Origin: Hexactinellida sp. DTS-2022
Taxonomy: Eukaryota > Porifera > Hexactinellida
DNA: 64,000 bases
NCBI GenBank assembly: GCA_028753945.1
Contig: JAPNXP010000001.1
Location: 4,702,501 to 4,766,500, forward strand
Direction: 5' to 3'
Position 1 is the first letter of the stretch. The number at the start of each line of letters is the position of its first letter. A program made the position numbers and the translations under genes. This document shows, piece after piece, positions 52,500 to 62,524 of the stretch. The notes beneath the pieces are model-generated. The model saw nothing but the letters and a program-made list of their open reading frames with translations. It did no database searches and was not told the origin of the DNA.

Positions 52500-53215
52500 A
52501 TAGCGGCTCTCTGTTAAAGTCCGTTTCAAGATAAGACTATAAGAAACAGAATATTTCATAAATGTCAGAAGCAGCATAATTCTCGTTAAAGATTGTATGA
52601 CTGAGTCGATTATTTTAAGGTTTCTCCCTTCAATATCTAATGTTGCAGAACGTCCCTGGATTACTTGATTGACGATGTCAATGAGAGCCATAATTTTAAA
52701 CCAAACAGTTGACATCATGATGCATGATACATTAGAATGATTGGATATATTTGATTGTCCCTAAGACCTCAGATTTTGCCTTGCTAGCTGATAATAGGTT
52801 AAGTTCCTAAAGGCTTTCTAAAGCTAATAAAACTCCAGGCAGCTGGTTAGAAAAGGCCCGAATGCTTGAGATCCGAGCGGTCCATCTAGTTTCTGACAGT
52901 CGATGAAGGAATGCTCCTATGTGATTCTGTTTTACACTGGCAGCAAATATATTGTAAACAGTCCGAACAGTATCAAAGAAAGTGACTGCTTTATTGTAAG
53001 ATTCTGCTGCATCAGTGCCGCAAAGATTTAATGAGTGACAAGCGCAGGGTGAGTAGAAGCAGAGAGGATTTTTGCGATTTTTTTAGATTGGACACCCTTG
53101 TATATGCCAGACATATTGGCAGCATTGTCATATCCCTGCCCACGACAATCTTGGTAAGAAATATTTGATTCATTGAGAAAGGTAATTATCATCGCAGATC
53201 TGCATCAGTCTTTTC
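52500..53215 (-). pseudogene. hAT transposase remnant (ZMYM1/DUF4371-like)
   Basis: Minus-strand frames give, in order, MIITFLNESNISYQDCRGQG followed by YDNAANMSGIYKGVQ (the hAT RGQGYDGAxNMSG block). After a one-base shift come PCACHSLNLCGTDAAESYNK and HRLSETRWTARISSIRAFSN. After stops comes WFKIMALIDIVNQVIQGRSA. These are the catalytic-core and later blocks of ZMYM1-like hAT transposases. The C-terminal dimerisation domain is missing, and the N-terminal part is cut by the insertion at about 53236-53575. The copy is inactive. Confidence 0.8.
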
Positions 53216-53578: not shown

Positions 53579-54004
53579 TTTATGGCATGAATTAAACCCA
53601 TTCTTAATTAAAATTTGTCTTCTCCCATCAGACGCAAAATTTTATGCTGAATCCAATGATGAAATAAAAATTGGGGGTTTAGTATAACATTTTTTTAGTT
53701 ATGGACCAGAAATTCTTTGTATGGTGTTAAAAATGTGTCCAAAATTTGTTAATCAAAAATCGTAACCCAGGTGCAAATTAGACGGTAACAACGCACCTAT
53801 ATGCCAAGTTTTCAGGCCATTAAGGAATGTGCAAGTTTGTGAACAATGGCCGACAAAATAAATTTCTAAGATTTCTTCACAAATAAAACTTTAAATTAGT
53901 GGACACGATTCACCAGGATATATGCATACAAAATATGCAATATCAAGTGATTGTCTATACTAGAAGTTGAACTTTACTCCATTTTAGTTTCAATATGGCG
54001 GTCG
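53579..54004. other. Flank between ribozyme element and transposon
   Basis: AT-rich. The stretch 53750-53830 (ATCGTAACCCAGGTGCAAAT and onward) is a direct copy of 63264-63345 on the other side of the transposon. No gene is seen. Confidence 0.6.
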
Positions 54005-54218
54005 ATTTAAAAGTACCTGGCGCATGCGGTACTACTACTACTACATACTACATTTAATACGTATAGGCAACATTCCTATGAAATGTGACCGTTTCCAATG
54101 TGAATAGTATGTTTAAATGGAATGTTCAAATATTTTAACTACAAAACATATTAATTGTGGTTACCCGTTATATACCAATATTACTAATTGGAATGTATGC
54201 ATAATTTGGTTTCGAATT

Positions 54219-54930
54219 TAAGGCTAAGGTTCGCCTGGAGATGGAGAAAGTACATTGGCTTGTTATATTCAGCCCTTAAACGCTTTCGAATTTGCTATTG
54301 TTTAAGACAAAGTTTGACTCTCTAGCTTATATACTTCCCGACTTACAGCAAGGTATGTGAATATGGAACTGAATGACAAATGATTGACCACAACATTAAT
54401 TGAAAATTATTCATAACTCGAGTCATAACTGAAATTTGGGTTATTATAAATGCGATGTTAGAGTCGCTATAGTTAGTACAAAGTAAATGCTTGGGGGCGA
54501 TAGAGAGCATAATATGATCAAATGTTTACTTTTCACACTACGTGGGTGATCAGTCGGAATTTTCAGGATGATGAAACATTCCTGAAAATTTCCGACCGAT
54601 CACCCACGTAGTGTGAAAAGTAAACATTTGATCATATTATGCTCTCTATCGCCCCCAAGCATTTACTTTGTACTAACTATAGCGACTCTAACATCGCATT
54701 TATAATAACCCAAATTTCAGTTATGACTCGAGTTATGAATAATTTTCAATTAATGTTGTGGTCAATCATTTGTCATTCAGTTCCATATTCACATACCTTG
54801 CTGTAAGTCGGGAAGTATATAAGCTAGAGAGTCAAACTTTGTCTTAAACAATAGCAAATTCGAAAGCGTTTAAGGGCTGAATATAACAAGCCAATGTACT
54901 TTCTCCATCTCCAGGCGAACCTTATCCTTA
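54219..54930. repeat. Near-perfect inverted repeat, arms about 350 bp
   Basis: The left arm 54219-54567 and right arm 54581-54930 are reverse complements with about two mismatches and one 1-base indel, separated by a 13-base spacer. The right arm ends 69 bases before the transposase ATG, so it probably contains that gene's promoter/leader. The left arm is an inverse copy facing the left terminus. Confidence 0.9.
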
Positions 54931-55329
54931 AAACTATAAAAAGTTTTTGTCGTTCCTTAATTTGTTTTGCAAATCAAGTTCTCAAACACTTAGATTATAA
55001 TGGCAGAATACTTCACTTGCTCAATGATGTCTCTGAATTCGAAAAACAAAAAAAGAAAAGCAGAGGAAGAAGACATCACTTTTCTGACAGAGGATGTAAG
55101 GAGAGTGCATTTTGCAGAGGAACCCTTGATTATTTCAGAATTTAACGTATCACAAAGTAAGTGTTCTATTTATATAAATTATATTTGTTGTGAAATACTA
55201 TTTTTTATAGCGTGCGATGAAAATGAGGATTACTCAGAACTTATTAAAGAAATAGAACTTTCTACTATTGAACAGTATGTAAGAATCTTAATTGAGGAGT
55301 CTCAACTGTGTCAATTAGAGGACAGTAAA

Positions 55330-55354
55330 TCTATATTATTAAATCTCGATTGTT

Positions 55355-55409
<55 letters not shown>

Positions 55410-56439
55410 TTTGTTTGTTTGTCCGGATTGTATTAAAGTGATGGGGGACTAGAAACCGCATTTATTATTGAGATAGAGACTAAGTTCCAAATGTTATAAT
55501 AGGTAAACAAGTATGCTGAACACGAATTTCGCGTTTATAAATTTATCATATTAATATTTGTTGTTGTTGTTGTTTACACAAAATAGGTAAACAAATTAAT
55601 GAAAATTCAAAATCAACCTTGAAGTTAGCTTTCAACGGGTATTATAGGTAAACAAGTATGCTGAACACGATTTTCGCGGTTAAAAATTTATAATATGAAT
55701 ATTTGTTGTTGTTGTTTACACAAAATAGGTAAACAAATTAATGAAAATTCAGAATCAACCTAGAAGTTAGCTTTCAACGAGTATTATAGGTAAACAAGTA
55801 TGCTGAACACGATTTTCGCGGTCAAAAATTTATAATATGAATATTTGTTGTTGTTGTTTACACAAAATAGGTAAACAAATTAATGAAAATTCAAAATCAA
55901 CCTAGAAGTTAGCTTTCAACGGGTATTATAGGTAAACAAGTATGCTGAACACGATTTTCGCGGTTAAAAATTTATAATATGAATATTTGTTGTTGTTGTT
56001 TACACAAAATAGGTAAACAAATTAATGAAAATTCAGAATCAACCTAGAAGTTAGCTTTCAACGAGTATTATAGGTAAACAAGTATGCTGAACACGATTTT
56101 CGCGTTTATAAATTTATAATATGAATATTTGTTGTTGTTGTTTACACAAAATAGCTAAACAAATTAATGAAAATTCAAAATCAACCTAGAAGTTAGCTTT
56201 CAATGGGTATTATAAGTAAACAAGTGTGCTGAACACGAATTTCGCATTTATAAAATTCTAATATGAGTATTTGTTGTTGTTGTTGTTTACACAAATAGGT
56301 AAACAAATTAATGAAAATTAGATAGCTATCTACCATTTCCATGGTAGAAAATGTGAGGAGTAAGGCCGCACAGCGGCCGTCAACTTGAGGTGCGTAGCAC
56401 CGATCTGTCGCAAAGCGACCGAGACCGAAGGGCTCGTAT
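55330..56439 (+). mobile_element. Helitron-like element with 142-bp tandem repeats, inside a transposase exon
   Basis: It begins TCTATATTATTAAATCTCG, has a (GT)n tract at 55360-55405 and TCCGGATTGTATTAAAGTGA, and ends GACCGAAGGGCTCGTA. The middle (about 55495-56330) is a 142-bp unit repeated more than five times, each with GGTAAACAAGTATGCTGAAC and TTGTTGTTGTTTACAC. It lies between AGTAA and TGTTAT of the transposase exon. No coding capacity. Confidence 0.75.
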
Positions 56440-56662
56440 GTTATAATAACGGATTTCGAACATTCACAAGGTATGCCTTTATATTACTTTGTTTATATTT
56501 AATCGCTTTATCCAAGTTAATTATACAATGTAAGGACGACCAGTTACATGAAAACTAATATTATTTACTGCATACAAAGTTACAAACTAATCACATGTGA
56601 AAAATATTGATCAGTAAATATATTGCGCCTTAAAACTATTATACTATTGGTCTAGTTAGTCT

Positions 56663-56706
56663 GCATTACCCATAGATACAAAAGTTATTTGTATCTATGG
56701 GTAATG
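56663..56706. repeat. Palindrome in a transposase intron
   Basis: CATTACCCATAGATACAAA is followed by its exact complement TTTGTATCTATGGGTAATG after a 6-base spacer, just upstream of the acceptor at 56719. Confidence 0.85.
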
Positions 56707-57496
56707 CAATAACTTATAGGAAAACTGGTATTCAAAAGAAAAAGCCTTGTTATTGATACAGAACTTCAATTTTGCTCTTGCTGTGACAAAAATGATTGTC
56801 TTCACTATCAAGCTTTTGTCCAATGTTCACAGATGAAGTGCTTGAAAGTTTGTGAGGCCAACAAACTTGATGAAATAGTCTATTTTCTAGTCAATCCTAC
56901 GAATATATTTATCTCAGCACTTGATACTCTTCATAACTATACTTCAAGAAGTGGTAATTGGTTCTGCAATTCTTGTATTGATAAATGTAAACAACAACCT
57001 AAGCTATCAAATATCCTCGCTATGACTAGACATGACCTATCGATGAAAAATCAACGACGGATTGAATACACTGTGGTAACGTCTAATCAAATACCATTGA
57101 ATCTTGATGAAACTCTTTGCTCCAATTATGACAAACAGCTTTCCGAAGGTATCCATCTACCAACTCATATAATGCCTGAAAAAAAATACTGCAAGCAAGG
57201 TTATATTTTCAACGGAGAGGACCAACTTAAATTGGAAAACACTGGAATAGTTATATATACAGAAAATGATGTAATTGAACTCAAGGAACACAAAGGTAGG
57301 ATGCTACTTTAATAGCTATCTCTATTTAATTTTTGAATAAGAAAATTCTCGTTATTTCATATTACATATAATTTATCATTTAGTATACAGCTCGATATGT
57401 GAAGGTCCTTGTAAGTGCATAGCAGTCTACGAAGGAATAATTATTTGCTCTTAAATATCAACAACAAGTACTTCATTCATTATAGCTTATTATACG

Positions 57497-58204
57497 ATTA
57501 CTAGCCGGGTGCCCGCGCTTCGCCGCGGTATTCAAATTCACGGGATGTCTTATAATGAGTTGATGATTTGAAATATGACGGATGTGTAATATGACGGATA
57601 TACAGAAGTTAACAATATTGTAAACAGTTGTATTAATATTACGTGGACCATAGGAATGAGACTATTGACAACTCAATGCAAGCTGAAATTTTATTGGTTA
57701 AATAATGTCAGCTATAGCAAAGGGACATTCAATTGTTGTTTTCTTTCATACACAATTGACCCATTGAATTATAGACCAATAAAACTCGAGTCAGAATAAT
57801 GTGAAAACTCTGCAATCTGATAGGTCAAGGTCGGTACCCTCGCAAAGTGTGAAAAATATGCATGTGGTAAATTGCAAATTATGCATTATATTGACTTTAA
57901 AATATAATATTTGGATTCCTCATACAATAAAACCTAGATTGCACGTTTGAAATGTTTTTCTAGCAGCACTGTGAACTTTTGATAATTCTAATTGAAATGT
58001 ATGGGAAGGTGCCAAAAAAAATCACATATTTTGAGTTAACTTCGCGAGGAATGTAAATATCTCTTAAAAATTCCTTATTCAGGGTGGTTGGGTAGTCCCT
58101 AAGTGACATACAAAATTTGGTTCAGATCTGTTGTGAACTCTCGGAGGAGATGTGAGGACATACACACACACACACACACACACAAACAACTTTATATATA
58201 TAGA
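57497..58204 (+). mobile_element. Unclassified interspersed repeat, about 0.7 kb
   Basis: It starts GCCGGGTGCCCGCGCTTCGC and ends with a CA microsatellite and AACTTTATATATATAGATA. Repeats with such GC-rich heads and TATATAGAT tails are common retroelement 3' pieces (RTE-like by resemblance only). It interrupts the transposase between YSLLYDY and MSRNTLYGY coding blocks. Confidence 0.5.
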
Positions 58205-60172
58205 TAGTGAGCTCATGACGATGTCAAGGAATACTCTGTACGGATACTTGAGGTTAGTGTACATATCCATCGTATCTATTCCAGGTAATGTATATGTTTG
58301 AGCAGGGTTTTTTTTAAGGCCGATCTTGCTGTAAATTTTGCACCAGTATTTTTTGGAGTTACACCACGATTTGGGTCGGCCTGGGCCTGTGCAGTGTTGA
58401 GTTATAACAAGGCCGCGCTGAGTTACATCAAGGTATCAACCTTAAAAAAAACCCCTGTGTTTGAGTATACAGTACAACTCTATTAACTGAACTTAAGATG
58501 TACCCCTTCGAGAATAAAAAATAACATATTTTATCAGATTGTACGTACTAATTAGATCAATTACGTACCTAGCGAGAACTACTGTAATGCCAATATTATC
58601 TAAATTTATCCTATATTATACGTATATTTAATTAGTGCTAAAAACCGGAAGCTTCAACGAATGGGAAGAAAGAGTACCTTCAAGTATCACATAGTTTATC
58701 ATGCCTGGAACGCATATTTAAGATTAGTTGACCTTGATTACCCCTCACTTTACACCTGCCCCCAATGTAAGCTGCAGCCAAAAATAGTAATTCTAGATGG
58801 AATAGCTATGGGAACCATGAGATCACTACCAGAAGTTATTGAAACAGAAGACTACGAACAAAAATATTCTATGATTGCAATCTCTGACAGAGTATTTATT
58901 CATGATTCAACCCTTCGAAAAAATTTCTTAAACTACAGCCTGCAAGGCCTAGCAGAAGATAATTTCAATGAACTGGTAAACATTCATGATACGTTTTGTG
59001 ACTTCATAACTTCCACTTCTTCAAAGTTGGATAACTGGGTGACAATAAGTGAAAATCATGAGAAGGTTAGGAAAGTGATACAACTTCTGTGTCGTAACGA
59101 GCCGATAACAGGATTGTTTCAATTCTCTATTTTGGATGCAAGCGAGAGAAAAACTATTGTTCACCTGTCTGATGGGGGATCGGCCAAGGAAGAATCCTTA
59201 AACCTGATCTATCAAAAAATGCATACGCTTGAGTGTTTGATCAAGTCAATACAACCATCCATAGACATAACCGGATATGTCACGTTAGACCCAGTTGTTG
59301 CCTCATTATTGAAGAAAATAATGACTCAAATCGATTCCTTATCCAGAAAACCAACCCGAAGGCTAGTTGAATTCTGTCCCGATAGTAATGAGTACTACAA
59401 TTACTTCCCGGCTTTTGATAAAAACTACAAGTAAGTCTACTAGTAATCCTCTTGTTAAAATGTGACTACATAGAATATACTGTAATATTTTATATGTTTT
59501 CCACAGGATACCAGTGTACGAGAATGCAACCGTCGAGTCGGTGGATAACTGTTCAAAAAGATTTCCAAAGCATCACAAGTTTTCTCCAGGACTGATGGCT
59601 ATCACCTGCCAACATAGAGTTTGCTACGGATTTCAGATTCTTAGAAAACATGAATCTACTGTATTAGTTTATAACTTACAACTCAGAATATTCAAAGTGC
59701 AGCCGAAAGTGATAATATATGATAACGCTTGCAATACATAATACATGTATGAAAAGGTAATTTGTATTACCTCAGTGTTTAGCTCACTGACTGAAATTAT
59801 TTGCAGTCTATTTCAAAATTGTAGGAATTACCTTTCTCTCTTCTTTATAGAGATCCAAAGTTATTTATGAAGACTACCTTTCTCATCGATCGTTTTCACT
59901 CAACAAATCACAAGTGTTGTCCGTCCTACTCAATGAGAAATATTCACACAGAAGAGATGAAGAAAATTAACTCACAAGTTTGTGAACAATTATTCTCTTC
60001 ACTTAGAAGGATATCAACTCAGATTGCATATATGCGTGTCGAAAACGTCTTTTTCACGACAAGATATTTCCTGGCTTGTTTTAATTCTAGTAAACCAAAA
60101 GTTTAATAAATATAAATTTATATTTGATTAAAATAAATATTAATAGTGTGTAAAAATGTAATGTGGTAACAG

Positions 60173-61977
60173 TTATTCAGTCAATGAAGTTACATTTCGA
60201 GGGCTACAGGGGGGGCAAGAAAAAATCTCTACATCCTCGCTTACGTCTACGAATCCCACACATGGTTTATGATACCAATTAAGGCATTTAGGGCACTCTA
60301 CCATGTTAGCAAATGCATAAGATGGTAGGTTACAGAGACACCATAACTTAATCTTAAATTCTGATCTTAAAAGGGTGCACATTTTAGATCGAAGTATCTT
60401 GCTTTCTGTGGTCGGGAAGGGTTTTAACAATTCGTTATTGAAGCAATCACTTAGGTGCGACCTCATTCTATTTTGTTTCCAGCGAACAAGGGCTGGATCA
60501 TCTCCGTTTGCAATCGCCAGACAGACTGCAGCTGCAAACAATCCGCAGTCTGCACCTCCTCTTTGTTGTTGAATAGGTACAAAAGTAACTTTTAGTTCTC
60601 CAGAACTGCTCCCATAGAGGAGAGATAACTGTACATCCAACTCTTCACTTGTTCTGCTTGTCATCATTGAGTCATAAAGACTGACATTCCCTTCAATATC
60701 AACACTGGAGCACACCCAATGAAGTGCCCCGTCATGGTGTATTTGCATGCTTGGGCGGGGAGCTCTGACGAATTGCCGGTTCTAAAATAGAAATCTTAAA
60801 ATAAATTAGGCTGGTATGAGACGAGTGTTGGCCTAATTAAGTAGTAAACTTTATCTTAATTACTTACTTTGGAAAGAATTGTATCCTGATTCCTGAAGGC
60901 CCTGTACATGGGGATAAGTATTCTTCAAGAGATCCTATATAATTTACATCGTAAATATCATAACTATATCTGTTGCTAATCAACTTACACAAAATGCATT
61001 AATACACGTATCAGTTAGGAATGTATTTCCAGTTTACAGCTCATGAAGGGATTGTGCTTTGTCTTTTCGGGTGACTATCGGTGTAAATTCAAAAATGGGG
61101 CTCAACGGTGTCGTACCCAAAAGCGTGGCTAAGCTGGGTGTAGGTACAGGGCAAGTAGGGTCTGTGTAAGAAGAAGTTTCGATCTGTTTTAATTCTGGAA
61201 AGAAAGATCCGTTACTACTAGTATCGATATCGGATACCGGGATCGCTATGGCAGATGAACACTGAGGATGAGTAGTCTCTGCTGAGTGTGTTTGTTGATC
61301 CTCAAATCTGGTTTCTGGAGATATCCTGGGATTTTTACTAGAGAACGCTTCTGAAGATGTTTTACGCCTTTTAGTTGCGTGAGGAATCGTCTTTGGACTA
61401 CTATGAGATTGCTCTCGAACGTTATCGAGGTTTCTACTATCTTTGTAACACTTGATAATTTTACATAGAGACTCTCTATTGCAGAGCTTGATATTCTTAT
61501 ATTCCACGTCGTTTGGCCAAAATGATGGTTTAGGGAATCGTCCTTCCAAAAAGCACTGTTTTTCCCTAATTATAGGATGTCGAGTCACACTAAGCATACA
61601 TTCGGGGATACTATTCGTTTTAGTTCCGTTATTTAATAAATAAATGACAACTCACCAATCGAATCTTTCGTAATCCACGAGACAAGCTTTCGAAGGGTTG
61701 GTACATTGACGATGTCCAGATCTCCCCAGATAAGATCGATTATTCGTTGGTCATCAGATAGCTTGTCATGGCACGGTTCGATGAGTTTACCAACTATGAA
61801 CTTCGAAACGTCATCTTTCAGAGAATGTACGAGCTGTTGAAATTTCTCTGGCCCTATGGTAGCTAGTTTTCCTCTCCATGTGTGTACCACTCCTATACTT
61901 TCTCCTGTTATGGACCGGAATTGCTTGAGAGTAGAGGACAACATCTCACGAGCGTTCGATTTTGTCATTCGAGGCAT
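60173..61977 (-). pseudogene. Transposon-borne Ulp1-like cysteine protease with PHD finger
   Basis: Last exon 60780-60173 holds the C48/Ulp1-type core. His is in GALHWVCSS, Asp in VSLYDSM, Gln and Cys in PIQQQRGGADCGLFAAA, so all four catalytic residues are kept. A C4HC3 PHD finger follows (LWCLCNL, VECPKCLNWYHKPCVG, FSCPPC). Upstream exons 60934-60868 (DLLKNTYPHVQGLQESGYNS) and about 61610-60984 add the protease N-terminus (FLTDTCINAF) behind a Ser/Pro-rich region with KRRKTSS. A TAA after SLHEL (about 61034) breaks the frame in the same exon, and the 60868/60780 junction is one base out of phase. A first exon 61977-61656 (MPRMTKSNAREMLSSTLKQF) splices with doubtful phase. Such SUMO-protease-like genes accompany several eukaryotic DNA transposons. 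This copy is probably dead. Confidence 0.65.
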
Positions 61978-62000
61978 TTTAGCTACTTATAAATTATATA

Positions 62001-62078
62001 CAGTAAACTCTCGTTATAACGAAGTGCTTCAGATATCCATTTCGTTATAGCCGACTTCGTTACAAAGGGAGTTCACTG
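62001..62078. mobile_element. Very short pogo-like MITE
   Basis: The ends are CAGTAAACTCTCGTTATAAC and TACAAAGGGAGTTCACTG, with TA on both sides. The centre ATTTCGTTATAGCCGACTTCG pairs with the left arm. It lies just upstream of the protease gene's first exon. Confidence 0.65.
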
Positions 62079-62164
62079 TAACTGTTTAGTTAATTATTCA
62101 GATAGTGCCCAGTACTCAATATTTATTATTTAATAAAACGAAAGCCTATTTAATTAAGAGATAT

Positions 62165-62333
62165 CTTATATGTAGACCGTCTATTTCTAGACCAGGTTTT
62201 CTTACATATACATTAGTATTACCCATAAAAAGCAGGGCTTTTGGTCTACAGAATTTATAGACGGTCTACAAATTTTTGGCTTATTTGTATGGGCTTTAAT
62301 AGACCGTCTAGAAATAGACCGTCTACATATAAG
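62165..62333. mobile_element. MITE with TAGACCGTCTA words
   Basis: CTTATATGTAGACCGTCTAT and its complement ATAGACCGTCTACATATAAG form the ends, and TAGACCGTCTA occurs again inside. It sits within the right end of the large transposon. Confidence 0.75.
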
Positions 62334-62380
62334 GATGCTCTTTAATTAAACCACCTCATATACGGATGTTGCGTCACACG

Positions 62381-62468
62381 AGTAGCGCATGCGCCAGGTA
62401 CTAGTAGCGCATGCGCCAGGTACTTTTAGCGCATGCGCCAGGTACTAGTAGCGCATGCGCCAGGTACT
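62381..62468. repeat. Four 22-bp subterminal tandem repeats
   Basis: The units begin at 62381, 62403, 62425 and 62447, each containing AGCGCATGCGCCAGGTACT; only the first three bases vary. One inverse copy is at the left end (54012-54030). They may be transposase binding sites. Confidence 0.85.
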
Positions 62469-62524
62469 TTTAAATATATGCGATTTAATTAACTATAAAG
62501 CTCTGGCCAGGCACCGTCTACGGA

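What the first reader, a model, noticed from the sequence alone, without database searches (positions are those of the whole stretch)
54005..62475. Two-gene transposon pairing a KDZ-like transposase with a Ulp1-PHD protease
Convergent transposase and SUMO-protease-like genes lie between matching 24-bp inverted repeats. The protease keeps its His-Asp-Gln-Cys set and is followed by a PHD finger, a combination suited to desumoylation at chromatin. A separate upstream ORF (61656-61977) of unknown fold may be a third component. I do not recognise this exact architecture as a named family.
Basis: partly seen in the sequence, partly recalled or inferred. Interest (0 to 1): 0.8.

Follow-up and report, generated by a model that had tools for sequence, protein, structure and literature searches.

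The report
Transposon whose protease reads its ends
This is a damaged copy of a recently active jumping gene in an animal genome that carries, besides its transposase, a SUMO-protease-like gene joined to a DNA-reading domain like that of the human gene regulator NRF1, and the transposon's own ends are lined with matching NRF1-type sites.

Summary
The window copy (54011-62480, flanked by CGATTTAA) is a KDZ-type (Zisupton-like) DNA transposon. Six compact relatives are 5.78-5.94 kb, 99.1-99.97% identical, with 8-bp target-site duplications; the window copy is broken by four nested insertions and frame changes. Transposase and protease travel together: 74 of 108 transposase loci have an Ulp1-PHD exon within 3 kb, all 74 convergent (random 1.1). 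The ends are arrays of 22-bp units centred on GCGCATGCGC, the NRF1 site. Of ten families read, four share this palindrome and six carry others, largely in step with residues aligned to NRF1's base contacts; exact tandem pairs of two of these (GCACATGTGC, TCGACAGTCGA) occur in the 112 Mb only at both ends of their own elements. Most likely the protease binds its own termini and removes SUMO there, to license transposition or resist silencing: binding is strongly inferred, the effect not shown. Transposase-Ulp1 pairing is known; the NRF1-like reader with co-varying arrays appears new.

The parts
54003..54010 (.). left target-site duplication CGATTTAA
   Evidence: read off; 8-bp duplications in other copies
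54011..62480 (.). element (broken copy; about 10 nt of the left tip missing)
54011..54038 (+). left terminus with one 22-bp unit (3 to 8 units in the seven other full copies, core with at most one mismatch)
54222..54927 (.). nested insertion: fold-back element, 347-nt arms 99% complementary, absent from the other copies
55000..60106 (+). transposase gene; exons by transfer from L019: 55000-55156, 55211-56470 (interrupted), 56720-57295, 57384-58252 (interrupted), 58636-59430, 59507-59756 (2 nt shorter than in L019), 59851-60106
   Evidence: gene model (7 exons, GT..AG introns, 784 aa open in L019 and L021); window coordinates read off
55331..56436 (.). nested insertion with (GT)n and 142-bp tandem repeats
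57501..58203 (.). nested insertion, absent from the other copies
60173..60781 (-). protease exon 4: Ulp1-type His/Asp/Gln/Cys and PHD finger
60868..60901 (-). protease microexon (27 nt, GLQDTILSK, in the copies modelled)
   Evidence: window coordinates read off
60989..61565 (-). protease exon 2: rest of the NRF1-like DNA-binding domain, linker, and (in L019) the first part of the Ulp1 domain, FLTDTCINAF; frame broken in the window copy
62158..62337 (.). nested short insertion with imperfect inverted repeats, many copies in the genome
62383..62470 (.). right terminal array: four 22-bp units, each with the NRF1-type palindrome GCGCATGCGC
62481..62488 (.). right target-site duplication CGATTTAA
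   Evidence: read off

Best explanation
A cut-and-paste DNA transposon of the KDZ (Zisupton-like) kind with two convergent genes: a KDZ transposase, and a companion protein made of an NRF1-like dimerisation and DNA-binding domain, an Ulp1-type protease and a PHD finger. The companion dimer binds the palindromes repeated at both ends of its own family (strongly inferred), and so places a desumoylase and a histone-reading finger on the ends (inferred). There it most likely strips SUMO from silencing or repair factors, or from the transposase complex, so that the element can be expressed and moved (inferred, weakest step). Protein and terminal array have diverged together, which would keep each family addressed by its own protein.
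For: Transposase: PF18758 35.5 bits, cut-off 26.6; 12 of 16 genome hits over cut-off, seven of them only with their neighbours in the frame. Recent mobility: seven full copies, six aligned at 99.13-99.97%; 8-bp duplications exact in 4 of 7, seven of eight bases in 2, shifted by one base in 1. Linkage: 74 of 108 transposase loci with Ulp1-PHD within 3 kb, 74 of 74 convergent, random mean 1.13. NRF1-like domain: PF10491 over cut-off (9 of 9 families at E <= 0.1, best 1.1e-11); profile against NRF1 structure 8k4l E 9.4e-12 over both domains; 35 of 42 non-host PF10491 hits lie upstream, same strand, of an Ulp1-PHD exon (random 0.13). Site: NRF1 binds GCGCATGCGC through R206, N242, R244 (PMC10810270, abstract and passages); the window's four right-end units carry exactly it. 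Aligned residues are R/N/K in the four GCGCATGCGC families. Asn at 242 goes with the outer G (7 of 7 families), Cys at 242 with its loss (3 of 3); among Asn families, Lys at 244 goes with the unchanged site (4 of 4), Tyr/Ala/Ser with changes at the two pairs that R244 contacts (3 of 3). GCACATGTGC pairs: 6 of 6 clusters are the two ends of three family-E copies; TCGACAGTCGA pairs: 8 of 8 clusters are the two ends of four elements; reversed-pattern controls 0.
Against: No binding, protease or transposition experiment. The covariation rests on ten families in about three groups, so few independent events, and the transposase could co-vary too. Families with Cys/Ser keep the two inner pairs that R244 contacts (G, H), and family I's palindrome is odd-length, so its register is a guess. 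In family G only 2 of 6 units match the core exactly; family K has a weak array of 2 exact and 1 near units at 26 bp, without the shared CATATATT end. Ulp1 and PHD scores of the window exon are below Pfam's cut-offs. In four near-identical copies (L010, L018, L019, L020) the last PHD zinc pair is altered by a frame change, so the PHD may be dispensable. GCGCATGCGC pairs: 6 of 20 listed clusters lie far from coding loci. GAGCATGCTC: only 2 of 18 listed clusters lie near coding loci; of the other 16, eight form four pairs 0.3-3.3 kb apart and eight are isolated. 27 of 108 transposase loci have no Ulp1-PHD within 12 kb and 52 of 135 Ulp1-PHD loci no transposase hit.
Confidence: 0.7

Rival explanations
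1. The arrays are host NRF1 sites: the element hijacks host NRF1 as promoter activator, and the protease's NRF1-like domain is incidental.
For: The window family and three relatives carry the exact host consensus, and a host-like NRF1 gene exists (C1:12370499, 176.5 bits).
Against: Six of ten families carry palindromes changed at bases that NRF1 contacts (contacts from PMC10810270), yet keep the array architecture and the NRF1-like domain.
Confidence: 0.12
2. The transposase, through its cysteine-cluster region, is the main binder of the arrays; the NRF1-like protein only modulates.
For: Transposases usually bind their terminal repeats (general knowledge); CxC4-like region present (20.3 bits, below cut-off 26.9).
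Against: The array palindrome is the NRF1 site and the NRF1-like domain is in the other protein; its contact residues track the site.
Confidence: 0.3
3. Ordinary Zisupton with an Ulp1 accessory; NRF1 resemblance is chance or remote convergence.
For: Single-sequence match to NRF1 structures is weak (E 0.002).
Against: Nine-family profile E 9.4e-12 across both NRF1 domains, Pfam over cut-off, and the terminal site is the NRF1 site.
Confidence: 0.04

Closest known systems
Zisupton (KDZ superfamily)
   Same: KDZ transposase over the Pfam cut-off, multi-exon genes, inverted repeats, 8-bp duplications (8 bp for Zisupton: PMC12730594, passages; multi-exon: PMC9297572, passages); SUMO-protease association (recalled from Bohne 2012, not held).
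   Different: Protease is a separate convergent gene (in the fish element, from recall, an alternative C-terminal isoform); NRF1-like domain and PHD; ends are arrays of NRF1-type palindromes.
Ginger1 and Mutator-like transposons with Ulp1 (and PHD)
   Same: Ulp1 plus PHD in a transposon (Ginger1-9_HM; PMC2836005, passages).
   Different: Other transposase type, domains C-terminal in the transposase itself, no NRF1-like domain in the passages seen.
NRF1 / Erect wing / P3A2 transcription factor
   Same: Dimerisation plus DNA-binding domains, two of three base-contact residues identical and the third Lys for Arg, GCGCATGCGC site (PMC10810270, abstract and passages).
   Different: Fused to protease and PHD inside a transposon; sites at transposon ends; specificity diversified.
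VANC anti-silencing proteins of VANDAL elements
   Same: Element-encoded second protein, family-specific short motifs in tandem repeats that evolve with the protein (PMC5735166, passages).
   Different: Plant elements; no protease or NRF1 domain in the passages seen; functional data exist there, none here. A parallel, not a relative.

Membership tests
KDZ / Zisupton | KDZ transposase domain (PF18758) | tested here: met
   35.5 bits vs cut-off 26.6 on the spliced L019 protein; 12 of 16 genome hits over cut-off, seven only with neighbours in the frame
KDZ / Zisupton | catalytic acidic triad of the transposase | not tested
   triad not mapped here
KDZ / Zisupton | 8-bp target-site duplication | tested here: met
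   exact in 4 of 7 full copies, 7 of 8 bases in two, shifted by one base in one; window CGATTTAA
KDZ / Zisupton | terminal inverted repeats | tested here: met
KDZ / Zisupton | cysteine cluster (CxC) region | tested here: inconclusive
   PF18717 CxC4 20.3 bits, cut-off 26.9
KDZ / Zisupton | placement within Zisupton rather than Kyakuja or Dileera by a transposase tree | not tested
   no reference transposases in hand
Peptidase C48 (Ulp1) | His-Asp-Gln-Cys catalytic set and C48 profile | tested here: met
   residues invariant in 8 rows; C48 matched in 7 of 8 at E <= 0.1, best 1.1e-5; 6dg4 E 3.8e-4; window exon itself below cut-off
Peptidase C48 (Ulp1) | SUMO as substrate | not testable with these tools
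   biochemistry needed
PHD finger | C4HC3 zinc ligands | tested here: met
   PHD matched in 8 of 8 at E <= 0.1, window exon 22.9 bits vs cut-off 24; last pair altered in L010, L018, L019, L020 and cut off in row L040
NRF1 family | PF10491 dimerisation and DNA-binding domain | tested here: met
   28.2 bits vs 23.5; structure profile E 9.4e-12
NRF1 family | base-contact residues R206, N242, R244 | tested here: inconclusive
   R, N and K in the window family: two of three identical; R invariant in the nine families aligned; 242 and 244 vary with the site
Ginger1 | Gypsy-integrase-like transposase | tested here: not met
   Pfam scan at E <= 1 gives KDZ, no integrase

The most novel reading that the evidence does not exclude
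The element encodes a sequence-specific anti-silencing desumoylase: an NRF1-type reader that addresses a SUMO protease and a histone-reading finger to the terminal palindrome array of its own family, with reader and array co-diversifying into separate families within one genome. A still bolder form: animal NRF1, a master housekeeping regulator, and these transposons share one origin, so that NRF1 and its palindrome could be a domesticated transposon-end recognition system (or the transposons captured NRF1).
Probability: 0.35. Interest if true: 0.9.

Novelty: new variant of a known kind. Interest (0 to 1): 0.8.

Why it matters
It gives a reason why SUMO proteases ride on DNA transposons: here the protease carries its own address label for the transposon ends. 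It offers a natural series of NRF1-like domains with altered specificity and matched sites, which makes the specificity code of this unusual fold testable, in a young KDZ family. It also raises a testable question on the origin of NRF1.

Tried and rejected
Third ORF as a separate gene: rejected, it splices in frame to the protease. The first gene model had several splice offsets wrong by one base; redone. Host-NRF1 hijack as sole explanation: disfavoured by the variant arrays. Viral contigs: no relative of the transposase exon; the nine-family alignment was too divergent to scan with. Structure prediction of exon 1: queue full four times, no model made. Rows not counted: family M is absent from A1 because its exon 1 was not in hand (exon 2 only, L041); L076 shares family C's domain and was not counted as a family; L022 and L023 are partial and L011 was left out of the copy alignment. 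The 52 of 135 Ulp1-PHD loci without a transposase hit within 12 kb include elements whose KDZ domain was found only by PF18758 (C9, C14, C15); others may be other transposon kinds. The tree cannot root the families: NRF1 falls on a long branch beside family K. Literature: searches showed no title or abstract start that links an NRF1-like domain to a transposon, but listings were capped (for example 15 of 804 papers, 12 of 200, 15 of 101) and the one paper that holds the name Nrf1_DNA-bind (PMC8122590) was seen only in the listing. Bohne 2012 and Iyer 2014 are not held; statements on them are recalled or second-hand.
Full report
Setting. The window lies in a 112.4-Mb genome of 18 contigs, which fits the published Xenoturbella bocki assembly (about 111 Mbp, 18 scaffolds; PMC11521371, passages); the identity of the host is an inference.

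The element and its ends. Blast of the window stretch against other loci of the same genome shows seven other full-length copies (L009, L010, L011, L018-L021) and two fragmentary ones (L022, L023). Six copies are 5.78-5.94 kb; L011 is 7.03 kb. The six are 99.13-99.97% identical to each other, and four of them (L010, L018, L019, L020) differ by 2-7 substitutions: the family moved very recently. All seven were delimited by GAGCTATTTAAA at one end and TTTTAAATATATG at the other, and the bases next to these are 8-bp duplications: exact in 4 of 7, seven of eight bases in L010 and L021, shifted by one base in L009. In the window copy the right end is 62480; the left tip has lost about ten bases; CGATTTAA stands at 54003-54010 and 62481-62488. 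The window copy holds four insertions absent from the compact copies: 54222-54927 (fold-back), 55331-56436, 57501-58203, 62158-62337.

Genes. The transposase model has seven exons with GT..AG introns; it is open in 3 of the 6 copies in which all junctions were found (784 codons in L019 and L021, 781 in L020) and broken in L009, L010 and L018; L011 lacked a junction. The L019 protein matches PF18758 KDZ over the curated cut-off and CxC4 below it. The convergent gene has four exons; it is open for 505 codons in L010, L018, L019 and L020, where a frame change alters the last PHD zinc pair; L021 keeps that pair but has a stop in exon 2; L009 and L011 are broken. Both genes of the window copy are broken (insertions and frame changes).

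Linkage. Genome searches with the main transposase exon and with the Ulp1-PHD exon (only the best candidates are scored) give 108 and 135 merged loci. 74 of 108 transposase loci have an Ulp1-PHD locus within 3 kb, and 74 of 74 are convergent; random placement gives 1.13 on average, at most 7 in 500 trials. Within 12 kb it is 81 of 108 (78 convergent, 2 same strand, 1 divergent); of the 27 without, ten are matches under 400 bp.

The NRF1-like domain. The first 140 or so residues of the protease protein match PF10491 (28.2 bits, cut-off 23.5). A profile of nine families (A1) finds in the Protein Data Bank only NRF1 at significance: 8k4l E 9.4e-12 over dimerisation and DNA-binding domains, 8k3d 2.3e-10; the next two hits are at E 0.43. 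In the genome PF10491 gives 43 hits at E <= 0.1: one host-like gene (C1:12370499, 176.5 bits) and 42 others, of which 35 lie upstream on the same strand of an Ulp1-PHD exon at 0.5-3.2 kb (random 0.13).

The terminal arrays. NRF1 binds GCGCATGCGC as a dimer through R206, N242 and R244 (PMC10810270, abstract and passages). The 22-bp units at the element's ends carry this decamer, counted with at most one mismatch: 3-8 units on the left and 2-6 on the right in the seven full copies, 1 and 4 in the window. In the window the exact decamer occurs four times, all at the right end. Protease-side ends of nine further families were read: B, C, D GCGCATGCGC; E GCACATGTGC; K GTGCATGCAC; M GAGCATGCTC; G TCGCATGCGA (2 of 6 units exact); H CCGCATGCGG; I TCGACAGTCGA (odd length). 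The period is 21-23 bp except in K (26 bp, 2 exact units and 1 near). Residues aligned to 242/244: A-D Asn/Lys; E Asn/Tyr; K Asn/Ala; M Asn/Ser; G, H, I Cys/Ser; Arg at 206 in all nine families of A1. N242 contacts the outer G: kept in 7 of 7 Asn families, lost in 3 of 3 Cys families. R244 contacts the next two pairs: unchanged in 4 of 4 Lys families, changed in 3 of 3 Asn families without Lys, but unchanged in G and H despite Ser. The FastTree tree joins A-D (support 0.985) and E, K, M (0.932, together with NRF1, which sits on a long branch beside K), leaving G, H, I; it is unrooted and these are few independent events.

Exclusiveness. Tandem pairs of GCGCATGCGC: 168 in the genome, reversed control 0. 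Of the 50 places listed (all on C1; the list is cut) 14 of 20 clusters lie within 6 kb of an exon-1, Ulp1-PHD or transposase match, 12 of them as the two ends of six elements; two of those six have only an exon-1 match. Four more clusters form two pairs 1.1-1.4 kb apart (probably non-autonomous), two are isolated. GCACATGTGC: 18 pairs, control 0, complete list: 6 of 6 clusters at the two ends of the three family-E copies. TCGACAGTCGA: control 0, complete list: 8 of 8 clusters at both ends of four elements on C9, C14, C15 and C17, in inverted orientation. CCGCATGCGG: 90 pairs, control 0; 10 of 10 clusters among the 50 places listed lie within 3 kb of a transposase or Ulp1-PHD match. GAGCATGCTC: 330 pairs, control 0; of 18 clusters among the 50 places listed only 2 lie near coding loci, eight form four pairs 0.3-3.3 kb apart, eight are isolated.

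Mechanism. Shown by sequence: linkage, domain homology, site identity, structured covariation, recent mobility. Inferred: dimeric binding of the companion protein to its own ends; units about two helical turns apart would put sites on one face. The PHD is closest to PHF2/PHF8/BPTF fingers, which from recall read H3K4me3; together with a desumoylase this suits keeping the ends in an open, SUMO-poor state, as SUMO is, from recall, used in animal transposon silencing. VANC proteins of VANDAL elements are a functional parallel (PMC5735166, passages), not relatives. The E, K and M palindromes, as read from the sequences, have lost the CpGs of the NRF1 site, which might relate to methylation.

Novelty. 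Ulp1 with KDZ is recalled for Zisupton and Ulp1+PHD is documented for Ginger1; an NRF1-like reader fused to them, with terminal NRF1-type arrays that differ in step with it, did not appear in the capped listings of the searches made. Hence: new variant of a known kind, with a mechanism that looks new in this setting.

Noticed in passing
window 54217-54932: Fold-back element with 347-nt arms, 99% complementary; dozens of related places in the genome. The target looks like TTAA by eye.
   Followed up: partly
window 55331-56436: Insertion with (GT)n and 142-bp tandem repeats; possibly a rolling-circle element (no clear duplication).
   Followed up: no
window 57501-58203: Insertion starting TAGCCGGGTGCCCGCGCTTCGCCGCGG and ending in TATATATAGA; resembles Helentron-like repeats from recall.
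   Followed up: no
window 62158-62337: Short inverted-repeat insertion; 29 related places at 91-97% identity are listed.
   Followed up: no
G000 C13:3115887-3116423, C3:829305-829808, C6:947737-948279: Ulp1-PHD matches inside long open frames (787, 487, 316 aa) without a transposase match within 12 kb: perhaps other transposon kinds with the same module.
   Followed up: no
G000 C1:3940842-3942093, C1:7494474-7495995: Paired terminal arrays 1.1-1.4 kb apart with no coding locus near: candidate non-autonomous derivatives moved in trans.
   Followed up: partly
families E, K, M (L069, L075, L077): Their terminal palindromes lack the CpGs present in the NRF1-type site, while the other families keep two.
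   Followed up: no
L010, L018, L019, L020: The most similar subgroup shares a frame change that alters the last PHD zinc pair.
   Followed up: no
window 52807-53082: Reverse-strand ORF that looks hAT/ZMYM1-like from recall.
   Followed up: no
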